Source: Streptomyces venezuelae | GTDB lineage: Bacteria > Actinomycetota > Actinomycetes > Streptomycetales > Streptomycetaceae | Length of the DNA: 64,000 nt | NCBI RefSeq assembly: GCF_008642335.1 | Contig: NZ_CP029191.1 | Coordinates: 2,294,001 to 2,358,000 of the forward strand | Direction of reading: 5' to 3' | In this document: positions 9,322 to 49,692 of the stretch, one piece after another | How the letters are laid out: every line of letters starts with the position of its first letter | Numbering within the stretch: position 1 is the first letter of the stretch | Position numbers and translations under genes: made by a program | The notes under the pieces: generated by a model | What the model was told of the DNA's origin: nothing | The model's input: only the letters and a program-made list of their open reading frames with translations | Databases searched by the model: none

Positions 9322-9335
9322 TAGAACGCGTTCCA
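9322..9335. promoter_or_regulatory. KstR-type operator TAGAACGCGTTCCA
   Basis: This is an exact match to TnnAACnnGTTnnA, the published KstR palindrome. It lies 90 bp upstream of the MaoC start in a 286-bp divergent intergenic region. Confidence 0.75.
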
Positions 9336-9384
9336 GTCCGGCGATCCCCATGTATAGCCGAGGGCACAGGACTTGTGAACCCTC

Positions 9385-9399
9385 CTGACGCTACGTCAG
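9385..9399. promoter_or_regulatory. CTGACG-cta-CGTCAG dyad (second shared motif)
   Basis: This is a perfect 6-3-6 inverted repeat. It lies 50 bp beyond the KstR-type site, seen from the MaoC operon. The same dyad recurs near 18.26, 23.25 and 49.71 kb, always before an acyl-CoA, P450 or F420 oxidoreductase gene. Confidence 0.65.
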
Positions 9400-9518
9400 A
9401 TCAGTGGCCGTATCGGACAGCACCCGGACAGCACCCGGGGAGCGGTGACATTTGTACCGGTCGGGTCCGTACGGCTGACTCTGCCGCCGGCCCGCCCCGG
9501 ATTCGTAGCGTCATAGCC

Positions 9519-9755
9519 ATGACGAAGACATCAGAGGGCGGGCCCGCGGTGGTGTTCGACGGCGCCGTGAAGACCTTCGGCGGCGTCCGTGCCGTGGCCG
9601 GCGTCGACCTGGAGATACGGCGGGGCGAGGCCGTCGCGCTGCTCGGCCGCAACGGCGCGGGCAAGTCCACCACGCTCTCCCTGCTGCTCGGCCGGCTGCC
9701 GGCGTTCGGTTCGTACGCTGTGGTCTCGTACCGGCGCGCCTCGCGGACCGCGTGA
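9519..9755 (+). pseudogene. Truncated ABC transporter ATP-binding protein
   Basis: The first 60 or so residues are a normal ABC ATPase N-terminus with Walker [10 protein letters not shown]. The frame then runs into unrelated sequence ([16 protein letters not shown]) and stops at 78 residues. The Q-loop, signature motif and Walker B are absent, so the product cannot work as an ATPase. No permease gene follows. Streptomyces often carry an ABC ATPase and permease just upstream of a DesK-type kinase and regulator, so a deletion most likely removed the rest of the ATPase and the permease. The break falls after about position 9705. The TGA overlaps a possible GTG start of the kinase. Confidence 0.85.
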
Positions 9756-9787
9756 GACGAAGGAACCGGAGGGCGAGGAACGTGGAT

Positions 9788-11059
9788 ATGTCCCGGAGGA
9801 ACAGGGTCAGCTGCCGGCTGCACGGGTGGCGGGACGCGCGCGCGGCCCGGAAGGGCGCCCGCGACGAGTGGCGGAGCGAGCGCCGGCGCGTCAAGGAGAA
9901 CTGGCGGGAAGGCCGCAGGGCCGGGGACCGGATCGAGAACCTCGGCCCGCCGCCCAACGGGTTCTCGCTCCTGCCCTGGCTCCTCATGGGCCTGGGCGCC
10001 ATCTCGCACCTCCTCCAGGGCGAGACCCCCAACCCCTGGATCGGCGCCCTCGGCGTCCTCCTCTTCAACTCCCTCTACGTCTTCATCGCCTTCCGCGCCT
10101 TCAACACGTACACACGCGAGGCTCGCGCGACCAGGATCGCGCTCGTCCTCCTCGGCCTGCTGACCGTCGCCCTCGCGACCGGGTACGGCGGCAACTGGCT
10201 CCTCTTCTTCCCGCTGCTCGGCCTGGCCGTCGGGGCCATCGTGCGCGGGCGCGGGCTCGGGCCCATCAGCCTGGTCCTGAGCGTGCTCGCGGGCGTCATC
10301 GGCGGATTCAGGGAGGGCTGGACCGGCCTGAACGTCGCGTATGGCACGTTCCTCTCCACCATGGTGACCGCCGCGATCCTCTCCCTCGCCGAGGCGGTGC
10401 GCGAACTCCGCGAGACCCGTGAGGAACTGGCCCGCACCGCGGTCGAGAAGGAACGCCTCCGCTTCTCCCGCGACCTGCACGACCTGCTCGGCCACACGCT
10501 CTCCGTGATCGTGGTGAAGGCGGAGGCCACGCGCCGCCTCGCCCCGCACGACCTGGACGCGGCGCTCGGCCAGGTCGCCGACATCGAGTCCGTCGGCCGG
10601 CAGGCGCTCACCGAGATCCGCGAGGCCGTCACGGGCTACCGCGAGGGCAGCCTCGCCACAGAGCTCGACCGCGCCCGCGACCTCCTCGAAGCCGCCGGCA
10701 TCGGCACGGTCGTCCGCCAGTCGGGACCGCCCCTCGCCCCGCACACGGCGGCACTCCTCGGCTGGGTGGTCCGCGAGTCCGCCACCAACGTCGTACGCCA
10801 CTCCGGCGCCATCCACTGCGAGATCGAGGTCACGGGCACGCCCGACGAGACCCGCCTCGTCATCACGGACGACGGACGCGGCGAGGGCTCGGGCCCGCCC
10901 GGCAGCGGCCTCAAGGGCCTGGCCGAACGCCTCGCCGCGGCGGGCGGCTCCCTCACCTCGGGCCCGGCCCCCCACTCCGGCTTCCGCGTCGCGGCGACCC
11001 TCCCCACCACGGAAGACACCCCGCTCCCGGAGAACCCGGCCACCTCCCCCGTCCACTGA
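9788..11059 (+). CDS. DesK/NarX-type sensor histidine kinase
   Basis: This is a membrane kinase of about 423 residues. A basic N-terminus is followed by about five or six hydrophobic segments (roughly residues 55-210), a coiled coil, and the HisKA_3 dimerisation box FSRDLHDLLGHTLS with the phospho-accepting His. The C-terminal ATPase domain has the motif ITDDGRGEGSGPPGSGLKGL. ATG 9788 is preceded by GAGGAA with seven bases of spacing; GTG 9752 is an in-frame alternative overlapping the truncated ABC gene. It partners the response regulator 20 bp downstream. The transporter it probably sensed with or controlled is lost, which leaves the system orphaned. Confidence 0.9.
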   Translation: MSRRNRVSCRLHGWRDARAARKGARDEWRSERRRVKENWREGRRAGDRIENLGPPPNGFSLLPWLLMGLGAISHLLQGETPNPWIGALGVLLFNSLYVFIAFRAFNTYTREARATRIALVLLGLLTVALATGYGGNWLLFFPLLGLAVGAIVRGRGLGPISLVLSVLAGVIGGFREGWTGLNVAYGTFLSTMVTAAILSLAEAVRELRETREELARTAVEKERLRFSRDLHDLLGHTLSVIVVKAEATRRLAPHDLDAALGQVADIESVGRQALTEIREAVTGYREGSLATELDRARDLLEAAGIGTVVRQSGPPLAPHTAALLGWVVRESATNVVRHSGAIHCEIEVTGTPDETRLVITDDGRGEGSGPPGSGLKGLAERLAAAGGSLTSGPAPHSGFRVAATLPTTEDTPLPENPATSPVH

Positions 11060-11079
11060 CGCCCGGTCATACTCGTCCC

Positions 11080-48161: not shown

Positions 48162-48256
48162 GGGTACGACGTTACGAAGAGTCACCGCGCGGGCGACATC
48201 CGAGAACCCCCCGGCCACGAGGTGTACCTGACGCCACCCGCGTACGCCGCCTGGAG

Positions 48257-48336
48257 CTACGTCTACGGCTACAACTACACAGCTACAGCTACAACTACAA
48301 CTACAGCTACAGCTACAGCTACAGCTACAGCTACAG
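48257..48336. repeat. CTACNN/CTACAG hexanucleotide tandem repeat (13 units)
   Basis: Four units (48257-48280) and nine units (48283-48336) of CTACNN are separated by two extra bases. The last six units are perfect CTACAG. The final unit contains the TAG stop of the FadA5-like gene on the minus strand. The array lies about 95 bp upstream of the lipase start. It is a microsatellite prone to slippage. Confidence 0.92.
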
Positions 48337-49500
48337 CCGCTGGATGATCGTCCCCGTCGCCACCGCACCGCCCGCGCACATGGTGATGAGCGCGAACTCC
48401 TTGTCCCTGCGCTCCAGTTCGTGCAGGGCCGTGGTGATGAGCCGCGCCCCCGTCGCCCCCACCGGGTGCCCGAGGGCGATCGCGCCACCGTTCACGTTGA
48501 CCTTCTCGAGGTCCTGGCCGAAGACCTGCGCCCAGCTCAACACCACCGAAGCGAAGGCTTCGTTGATCTCGACGATGTCGATGTCCTTCAGGGACATCCC
48601 CGCCTTGCCGAGCACGGCGCGCGTGGCGTCGACCGGCCCGTCGAGGTGGAAGTGCGGATCGGCGCCGACGAGGGCCTGCGCGACGATGCGCGCCCGCGGC
48701 TTCAGCTTGAGGGCGCGCGCCATCCGCTTGGACGCCCACATGAGGGCCGCCGCGCCGTCGGAGATCTGCGAGGAGTTGCCCGCGGTGTGCACGGCGGTCG
48801 GCATGACCGGCTTGAGGCGGGCGAGCCCCTCCATCGTGGTGTCGCGCAGCCCTTCGTCGCGGTCCACGAGCCGCCACATGCCCTGCCCGGCGGCCTGCTC
48901 CTCCTCCGTGGTGGGCACCTGCACGGCGAACGTCTCCCGTTTGAAGCGTTCCTCGGCCCAGGCGACGGCCGCCCGCTCCTGCGAGATGAGGCCGAGCGAG
49001 TCCACGTTCTCGCGGGTGAGGCCGCGTTTGCGGGCGATGCGCTCGGCGGCCTCGAACTGGTTGGGCAGGTCGACGTTCCACTCTTCGGGGAAGGGCTTGC
49101 CGGGTCCGTGCTTGGAACCGGAGCCGAGCGGTACGCGTGACATCGCCTCGACGCCGCAGCTGATGCCGACGTCGATGACGCCCGCCGCGACCATGTTGGC
49201 CACCATGTGGCTCGCCTGCTGGGAGGAGCCGCACTGGCAGTCGACGGTGGTCGCCGCGGTCTCGTACGGCAGCCCCATGGTGAGCCAGGCGGTGCGCGCC
49301 GGGTTCATGGACTGCTCCCCGGCGTGCGTCACCGTGCCGCCGACGATCTGCTCGACGCAGTCGGCGTGGATGCCGGTGCGGCCGAGGAGTTCGCGGTAGG
49401 TCTCACCGAGCAGATAGGCGGGGTGGAGATTGGCGAGCGCCCCTGAGCGCTTGCCGATGGGCGTGCGTACTGCTTCGACGATGACGGGTTCCGCGGCCAT
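48331..49500 (-). CDS. fadA5: Acetyl-CoA acetyltransferase, FadA5-like thiolase
   Basis: This 389-residue thiolase has the nucleophile Cys in [11 protein letters not shown], the His in [17 protein letters not shown] and the second Cys in ITMCAGGA. The N-terminus [15 protein letters not shown] and the segment [13 protein letters not shown] closely resemble mycobacterial FadA5, which performs thiolysis in cholesterol side-chain beta-oxidation. It is divergent from CYP125, exactly as fadA5 and cyp125 are in M. tuberculosis. ATG 49500 has GGAGG eight bases upstream. A one-mismatch KstR-type site lies 58 bp upstream. The microsatellite starts at its stop codon. Confidence 0.88.
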
Positions 49501-49557
49501 GGGCTCGTCCTCCCTCTCCACGTCCCGCGAGCCGTCCCGGCGGCTCGCGAGTGGAAC

Positions 49558-49571
49558 TAGTACGCGTTCTA
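49558..49571. promoter_or_regulatory. Degenerate KstR-type site (TAGTACGCGTTCTA)
   Basis: It matches TnnAACnnGTTnnA except for TAC in place of AAC. The wider sequence AACTAG-tacgcgtt-CTAGTT is itself an inverted repeat. It lies 58 bp before the FadA5-like start. Confidence 0.55.
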
Positions 49572-49678
49572 GTTCTGCCCTGCAGTCTGCTGAGCGCGAC
49601 CGGGGTGCCGCAAGGGTCTTGCACGCATTGCGCGCAGGACCCGCACGCAACCGGACCCGCTCTGGGCCTTGCCTCTTG

Positions 49679-49692
49679 TAGAACCCGTTACT
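49679..49692. promoter_or_regulatory. Degenerate KstR-type site (TAGAACCCGTTACT)
   Basis: It has the full AACnnGTT core of the KstR motif but T in place of the last A. It lies 85-98 bp before the CYP125 start. Confidence 0.55.

What the first reader, a model, noticed from the sequence alone, without database searches (positions are those of the whole stretch)
9322..49692. A scattered KstR-like steroid side-chain regulon with its regulator in one window
Seen: a TetR protein at 28752 with a recognition helix region nearly the same as mycobacterial KstR, and seven matches to TnnAACnnGTTnnA. Four are exact (9322, 18247, 28593, 38685) and three have one mismatch (38608, 49558, 49679). Each lies 40-145 bp before a gene for a MaoC hydratase operon, double acyl-CoA dehydrogenase, kstR itself, aldehyde dehydrogenase/ferredoxin, MBL-fold enzyme, FadA5-like thiolase or CYP125. 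Known: KstR controls cholesterol catabolism through this motif in mycobacteria and rhodococci. Inference: this Streptomyces has a sterol side-chain pathway whose genes are spread in small units rather than in one cluster.
Basis: partly seen in the sequence, partly recalled or inferred. Interest (0 to 1): 0.85.

Follow-up and report, generated by a model that had tools for sequence, protein, structure and literature searches.

The report
KstR-type repressor site at methylmannose operon
This Streptomyces has a relative of the mycobacterial cholesterol repressor whose predicted binding sites lie before sterol side-chain genes and, most conserved of all, on the promoter of genes for a sugar polymer thought to bind fatty acyl-CoA.

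Summary
Five exact TnnAACnnGTTnnA sites lie in the window (0.03 expected). The three one-mismatch sites are real. The TetR at 28752 is a single-copy KstR homologue, below NCBIfam's KstR cut-off (201.8 against 280 bits). CYP125 and FadA5 orthologues flank the sites, which are conserved in other Streptomyces.

The kstR-upstream site covers the predicted -35 box of a divergent operon, manT-pmeT3-mmpH, for methylmannose polysaccharide (MMP), proposed to bind acyl-CoA. In 58 distinct KstR+ intergenic regions the site is exact in 57, and TTGTTC-N17/18-TAnnnT overlaps it in 58. It persists in ten examined genomes lacking CYP125. None of six readable KstR-less genomes has an exact site, though four keep its core. 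KshA and HsaC were not found, so ring degradation looks absent.

Best reading: a KstR-type repressor whose near-universal target in Streptomyces is kstR/MMP, with an accessory sterol module (CYP125 in 106 of 150 genomes). Binding, ligand and repression are inferred, not shown. One search for KstR with methylmannose found no paper.

The parts
28752..29372 (+). KstR-type TetR repressor, 206 aa
   Evidence: NCBIfam NF033703 KstR 201.8 bits, cut-off 280; named KstR structure 5cw8 at E 1.4e-40; only strong copy in the genome
28593..28606 (.). operator TAGAACAAGTTTCA between kstR and manT
28595..28600 (-). predicted -35 box TTGTTC of manT, inside the operator
28571..28576 (-). predicted -10 box TAACCT of manT
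27125..28537 (-). manT, MMP mannosyltransferase
   Evidence: PDB 7qsg, E 5e-127
26373..27131 (-). pmeT3-like methyltransferase
   Evidence: methyltransferase domain and position between manT and mmpH, as in PMC9883506
25288..26376 (-). mmpH, MMP hydrolase
   Evidence: PDB 7qsj, E 2e-111
20332..21006 (+). meT1-like methyltransferase; no motif upstream in 19 of 19 orthologues
   Evidence: PDB 6g7d, E 7e-68 (that 6g7d is MeT1 is recalled)
9322..9335 (.). operator TAGAACGCGTTCCA, 90 bp before the MaoC gene
6254..9232 (-). MaoC hydratase (8378-9232), Zn alcohol dehydrogenase (7206-8282), SDR (6254-7195)
18247..18260 (.). operator TAGAACACGTTCCA, 42 bp before the double acyl-CoA dehydrogenase
14789..18205 (-). 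double acyl-CoA dehydrogenase, FadE34-like (16007-18205), and SCP2-type thiolase (14789-15979)
38608..38698 (.). two operators: 38608 (one mismatch) and 38685 (exact)
36855..39844 (.). ferredoxin (36855-37088 -), aldehyde dehydrogenase (37088-38554 -), MBL-fold enzyme (38789-39844 +)
49558..49692 (.). two one-mismatch operators, 49558 and 49679
   Evidence: two sites in 30 of 30 CYP125 loci
48331..51024 (.). FadA5 steroid thiolase (48331-49500 -) and CYP125 (49777-51024 +)
   Evidence: NF005889 694.7 bits against cut-off 515; PDB FadA5 4ubv E 2e-154; PDB CYP125 5dqn E 1e-150
7414..7427 (.). exact motif inside a coding sequence, probably chance; not counted as an operator

Best explanation
The protein at 28752 is a KstR-type TetR repressor that binds TAGAACnnGTTyyA-like operators. 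Between kstR and manT it covers the -35 box of the manT promoter, so it represses the MMP operon (manT-pmeT3-mmpH) and probably kstR. In genomes that have them, this one included, it also represses a sterol side-chain module: CYP125, FadA5, aldehyde dehydrogenase/ferredoxin, MBL, FadE34-like with SCP2 thiolase, the MaoC-ADH-SDR operon, and a Tat-signal GMC oxidoreductase 4.6 Mb away. By analogy with mycobacterial KstR (ligand recalled: cholesterol-derived CoA thioesters), a lipid CoA thioester would release it, switching on acyl-CoA catabolism together with a polymer proposed to bind acyl-CoA. Shown: sequence, position and conservation of operators, promoter boxes and genes. Inferred: binding, repression, ligand, physiology.
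For: KstR homology and single copy. Motif far above chance and equal to the published KstR motif. Target enrichment 82 of 93 against 14 of 439. Operator exact in 57 of 58 KstR+ intergenics, 52-55 bp before manT in 55 of 58 while kstR is 109-326 bp away. TTGTTC-N17/18-TAnnnT over the operator in 58 of 58. In 80 named loci 78 exact, 2 one-mismatch, promoter 80 of 80. Six readable KstR-less genomes: 0 exact, 1 one-mismatch. Two sites at CYP125 in 30 of 30. GMC promoter site with up to one mismatch in 29 of 30. The same motif between kstR and a FadE34 homologue in 7 of 7 f3 genomes.
Against: No binding or expression data. The protein is below the NCBIfam KstR cut-off and its place next to the f3 clade is unresolved. 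In four of six KstR-less genomes the inner GAACTTGTTC survives, which the -35 box alone does not explain. 35 of 44 CYP125-less genomes keep KstR, so sterols need not be the trigger. The CYP125 sites are never exact (0 of 30). The GMC own-genome promoter site has one mismatch and is exact in only 12 of 30 orthologues. MMP genes of 9 non-Streptomyces genomes lack an exact site.
Confidence: 0.72

Rival explanations
1. The kstR/manT site serves kstR autoregulation only; the MMP operon is a passive neighbour whose expression does not depend on KstR.
For: TetR repressors commonly regulate themselves and mycobacterial KstR does (PMC1995591). manT persists without kstR in genomes such as G044, G010, G037, G120, G135 and G113. 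MMP operons outside the genus lack an exact site.
Against: The operator is 52-55 bp from manT in 55 of 58 regions, while its distance to kstR runs from 109 to 326 bp, and it overlaps the conserved manT -35 box in 58 of 58.
Confidence: 0.15
2. The repressor controls these genes, but its physiological trigger in Streptomyces is a general long-chain or branched acyl-CoA, not a sterol-derived CoA thioester.
For: 35 of 44 CYP125-less genomes keep KstR, and in ten of them that I examined the operator stays at the MMP operon. MMP is proposed to bind fatty acyl-CoA (PMC9883506).
Against: CYP125 and FadA5 orthologues carry the sites, and 105 of 106 CYP125+ genomes have KstR. In S. lavendulae cyp125A13 rises with yeast (PMC13170338).
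Confidence: 0.3
3. Another regulator binds the motif, or its conservation reflects promoter constraint alone.
For: The operator contains the -35 hexamer, and the core GAACTTGTTC survives in four of six KstR-less genomes.
Against: No other strong KstR homologue in the genome; next hit 38.8 bits. Bases outside the -35 hexamer are conserved in KstR+ genomes and no exact site is left in the six KstR-less ones. The motif recurs at unrelated promoters of lipid genes.
Confidence: 0.05

Closest known systems
Mycobacterial KstR regulon (Kendall et al. 2007, PMC1995591, passages and two sections read)
   Same: TetR homologue, motif TnnAACnnGTTnnA, site in its own promoter region, targets of lipid/sterol side-chain type; in f3 genomes kstR sits beside a FadE34 homologue with the same motif
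   Different: Here the divergent neighbour is the MMP operon, not fadE34; KshA and HsaC were not found; the protein is 45% identical to the f3 KstR of L188 and under the NCBIfam cut-off
Mycobacterial MMP gene cluster (Maranha et al. 2023, PMC9883506, abstract and passages read)
   Same: manT, pmeT3, mmpH and meT1 homologues, the first three adjacent
   Different: Here meT1 is about 4 kb from mmpH, and a KstR-type gene with its operator is divergent from manT; no KstR-like regulator appears in the passages read
Streptomyces sterol enzymes: CYP125A13 (PMC9728343, passages), S. lavendulae ChoD (PMC6694107, passages), yeast predation (PMC13170338, passages)
   Same: cyp125A13 is induced with yeast; CYP125A13 oxidises cholesterol
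   Different: KstR has 0 occurrences in two of these texts (not searched for in PMC6694107). The characterised ChoD is a ChoA-type enzyme (82% to P12676), while the GMC oxidoreductase here scores 76.4 bits against a cut-off of 850 on NCBIfam's cholesterol oxidase

Membership tests
KstR (cholesterol catabolism repressor) | score over NCBIfam NF033703 curated cut-off | tested here: not met
   201.8 bits against 280; an f3 protein (L188) scores 333.4
KstR (cholesterol catabolism repressor) | groups with f3 KstR proteins in a tree | tested here: inconclusive
   one Streptomyces clade (96/99), order relative to the f3 clade unresolved; only two own-genome TetR outgroups, both on long branches
KstR (cholesterol catabolism repressor) | TnnAACnnGTTnnA operator upstream of its own gene | tested here: met
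   exact at 28593; 57 of 58 regions exact; 78 of 80 named loci exact
KstR (cholesterol catabolism repressor) | motif upstream of sterol side-chain genes | tested here: met
KstR (cholesterol catabolism repressor) | binds the motif and is released by cholesterol-derived CoA thioesters (ligand recalled) | not testable with these tools
   needs bench work
Aerobic 9,10-seco steroid ring degradation | KshA and HsaC present | tested here: not met
   no PF19298 match and no match to an HsaC query that itself passes the NCBIfam HsaC cut-off; neither search had a strong positive-control genome
Sterol side-chain degradation | CYP125 and FadA5 orthologues | tested here: met
Sterol side-chain degradation | acyl-CoA ligase, third-cycle enzymes, sterol uptake | not tested
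   no search made
MMP biosynthesis cluster | ManT, MmpH and two methyltransferase homologues | tested here: met
   7qsg E 5e-127, 7qsj E 2e-111, 6g7d E 7e-68; pmeT3 by domain and position
MMP biosynthesis cluster | the organism makes MMP | not testable with these tools
   PMC9883506 (passages) states that S. griseus makes an acetylated form; this strain unknown

The most novel reading that the evidence does not exclude
In Streptomyces the KstR-type repressor is first of all the regulator of the acyl-CoA-binding polymer MMP. A lineage-specific operator captured the manT promoter, so one lipid-CoA signal co-induces an acyl-CoA buffer and, where present, sterol side-chain catabolism. It would be the first regulator assigned to MMP synthesis, as far as my searches show.
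Probability: 0.5. Interest if true: 0.8.

Novelty: new variant of a known kind. Interest (0 to 1): 0.7.

Why it matters
MMP has been known since the 1970s (reference list of PMC9883506), and its acyl-CoA role is still described as proposed. A highly conserved operator of a lipid-CoA repressor family on its promoter gives a simple way to ask when and why cells make it. It also offers a candidate regulator for cyp125 during Streptomyces feeding on yeast (PMC13170338). And it bears on PMC3388012, which places the origin of KstR and its sites in the ancestor of mycobacteria and Rhodococcus: the Streptomyces sites, and those in several other families of the phylum, argue for an older origin or early transfer.

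Tried and rejected
Set aside: the exact 7414 motif and the six unlisted one-mismatch motifs. My gene call put the motif at C1:6985885 upstream of the GMC oxidoreductase; rereading the start showed it inside the Tat signal-peptide coding sequence, so only the 6985990 site counts as a promoter site. The query therefore lacked the first 62 residues. I first took this gene for choD; its NCBIfam score (76.4 against 850) and PMC6694107 argue against it.

From recall I suspected that the divergent GT/MT genes were relatives of Rv0225/Rv0224c; the structure matches showed ManT and MmpH instead. The 4334844 site is in a gene-poor stretch and unexplained. The two-mismatch scan gave 448 matches per strand and more (899) for the reversed control, so it could not list targets. 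No structure prediction and no protein-database homology search was run. A search for papers with KstR, cholestenoyl-CoA and ligand gave 0, so the mycobacterial ligand is from recall.

Rows dropped: the 58 regions are those left, out of 101 sequences given (81 loci and 20 joined pairs), after requiring both genes and manT aligned from its first five residues and removing duplicates by the 60 bp before manT. Some of the 80 named loci are the same genomes as G handles, so the two sets overlap.
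Full report
OBSERVATION. TnnAACnnGTTnnA has 5 exact matches in the window against 0.03 expected, and 14 with up to one mismatch against 2.16 expected. The exact match it missed (7414) is inside a gene. The genome is one contig of 8,048,154 bases and the window is 2,294,001-2,358,000 of it. Of 22 distinct places of TAGAACNNGTT, 5 are in this window. 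Of the 17 outside, 14 lie inside genes and 3 are intergenic: 4091656 (79 bp before an acyl-CoA dehydrogenase), 6985990 (before a GMC oxidoreductase) and 4334844 (gene-poor) (corrected). Gene starts are from my own codon-usage caller, not from an annotation.

THE REGULATOR. The 206-aa TetR protein matches NCBIfam KstR at E 7e-60, but at 201.8 bits against a curated cut-off of 280; an f3 reference protein scores 333.4. Named KstR structures match at about 1e-40. It is 45% identical to the KstR of L188 over 183 residues, with a nearly identical helix-turn-helix region. The next protein of this genome scores 38.8 bits. In a tree of 37 sequences the 14 Streptomyces proteins form one clade (96/99); its order against the f3 clade is unresolved, several branches are long, and one of three intended own-genome outgroups (L052) dropped out. 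I therefore call it KstR-type and do not file it as a KstR equivalog.

DISTRIBUTION. In 150 genomes of the genus (own included), 140 have the regulator at E<=1e-30, 147 have manT at E<=1e-80, a few only in part, and 106 have CYP125 at 72% identity or more (107 at the E cut-off, less G031 whose match is 42%). Of the 106 CYP125+ genomes 105 have KstR. The exception, G071, has manT cut at a contig end. 35 of 44 CYP125-less genomes keep KstR (Fisher 7e-5, not corrected for phylogeny). In a phylum sample 26 of 296 genomes matched at E<=1e-25, nine of them this genus.

THE MISSED TARGET. The divergent operon beside kstR is manT-pmeT3-mmpH. ManT matches PDB 7qsg at E 5e-127 and MmpH matches 7qsj at E 2e-111. 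The gene at 20332 matches 6g7d, by recall MeT1, at E 7e-68. PMC9883506 (abstract and passages) describes this four-gene cluster, says the polymer is proposed to sequester fatty acyl-CoA, and reports an acetylated form in S. griseus.

THE OPERATOR ON manT. Among 58 distinct KstR+ intergenic regions with manT aligned from its start, the operator is exact in 57 and has one mismatch in the other. It lies 52-55 bp from the manT start in 55 and 63-66 bp in 3, while the distance to kstR runs from 109 to 326 bp. TTGTTC-N17/18-TAnnnT overlaps it in 58 of 58. In 13 divergent genomes that I chose, 13 are exact.

KstR-LESS GENOMES. Of the ten genomes without KstR, three lack manT, one is cut at a contig end, and six could be read: none has an exact site and one has a one-mismatch site. 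Read by eye, four of the six (G044, G010, G135, G113) keep the -35 and -10 boxes while one or both outer operator bases differ. The inner GAACTTGTTC also remains in those four, which the promoter alone does not explain and which tells against a simple story of operator decay. The six are not independent losses.

OUTSIDE THE GENUS. 9 of 16 tested genomes have manT at E<=1e-50. None has an exact site within 500 bp upstream and none shows kstR in the locus; two have one-mismatch sites. In 8 regions of up to 20 kb around these genes, two hold an intergenic exact site at another gene. So the kstR-MMP link looks specific to the Streptomyces lineage; other genera of its family were not tested.

THE STEROL MODULE. 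In 20 genomes that I chose (10 with and 10 without CYP125), the motif with up to one mismatch is upstream of 82 of 93 starts of the eight target families and 14 of 439 others; exact, 48 of 93 and 8 of 439. Some of the 14 share an intergenic region with a target. CYP125 has two sites in 30 of 30 loci, none exact. The GMC oxidoreductase 4.6 Mb away has a Tat-type N-terminus and a promoter site with up to one mismatch in 29 of 30 orthologue loci, exact in 12. In the 10 CYP125-less genomes the ferredoxin/ALDH/MBL, FadA5 and FadE34/thiolase genes are missing from the 40 kb around kstR, while kstR, its operator and the MMP genes stay (in G082 manT is in two pieces). Elsewhere in those genomes was not searched for these genes, CYP125 apart. 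In 7 of 7 f3 genomes the exact motif lies between kstR and a FadE34 homologue; two second copies there lack it. KshA and HsaC were not found in this genome, without a strong positive control. This agrees with PMC4810484 (passages), where 55 of 57 Streptomyces genomes lacked a steroid pathway.

MECHANISM. Shown by sequence: operators, their overlap with a conserved promoter, their conservation, and the lack of an exact operator where KstR is absent. Inferred: the repressor blocks RNA polymerase at manT and at the sterol genes and is released by a lipid-CoA ligand. PMC1995591 (passages and two sections) shows such repression by KstR in M. smegmatis. PMC13170338 (passages) reports cyp125A13 induction and sterol modification when S. 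lavendulae meets yeast; the words KstR and regulator did not occur in its text. PMC9728343 (abstract and passages) reports cholesterol oxidation by S. peucetius CYP125A13.

NOVELTY. A search for KstR with methylmannose returned 0 papers. KstR with Streptomyces returned 51 (20 listed) and with cholesterol oxidase added 12 (10 listed); by the listed titles none describes a Streptomyces KstR regulon, but most were not opened. Methylmannose polysaccharide with Streptomyces returned 4. The library lacks most subscription journals. PMC3388012 (abstract and passages; two Streptomyces genomes among its 31) places KstR and its sites in the ancestor of Mycobacterium and Rhodococcus and speaks of paralogues further out. 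The Streptomyces operators, and exact motifs next to KstR homologues in other families of the phylum, argue for a wider origin or early transfer.

Noticed in passing
window 30114-36612: Cluster that looks like a class III lanthipeptide (ram/amf-like) locus: RamC_N/kinase/LanC-like protein 33976-36612, a short ORF at 33805-33930 and two ABC-type ORFs, between kstR and the ferredoxin gene. Not seen at that place in the 20 compared genomes (domains; the ABC label is from sequence by eye).
   Followed up: no
window 28645-28658: Palindrome CTACCGGCAGGTAG between the operator and kstR, exact in 50 of 80 named Streptomyces loci and within two mismatches in 7 more; function unknown, perhaps a second promoter or operator.
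   Followed up: partly
window 49679-49692: The operator next to CYP125 departs from the palindrome in the same way (GTTACT end) in the eight orthologue loci printed, as if the departure itself were kept.
   Followed up: partly
window 38789-39844: MBL-fold enzyme over the cut-off of the NCBIfam Strvi_7410 family (674.6 against 525), under a KstR-type motif in 9 of 10 genomes; substrate unknown.
   Followed up: no
L285 and orthologue loci L286-L314: A second KstR-like motif lies inside the Tat signal-peptide coding sequence of the GMC oxidoreductase in 23 of 30 loci; it may be a coding constraint or a real intragenic operator.
   Followed up: partly
L014 (C1:4091656-4091669): Perfect palindrome TAGAACAGGTTCTA between a flavin/2Fe-2S reductase gene and an acyl-CoA dehydrogenase gene; conservation untested.
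   Followed up: no
L195 and L199 (other families of the phylum): KstR homologues with exact TAGAACnnGTTnnA motifs nearby, with CYP125-like (L195) or FadA5-, hsd4A- and ALDH-like genes (L199) in the same 20 kb.
   Followed up: no
output: The genome-wide listing of TRGAACNNGTTCYA left out the window's own exact sites, although one search listed them.
   Followed up: no
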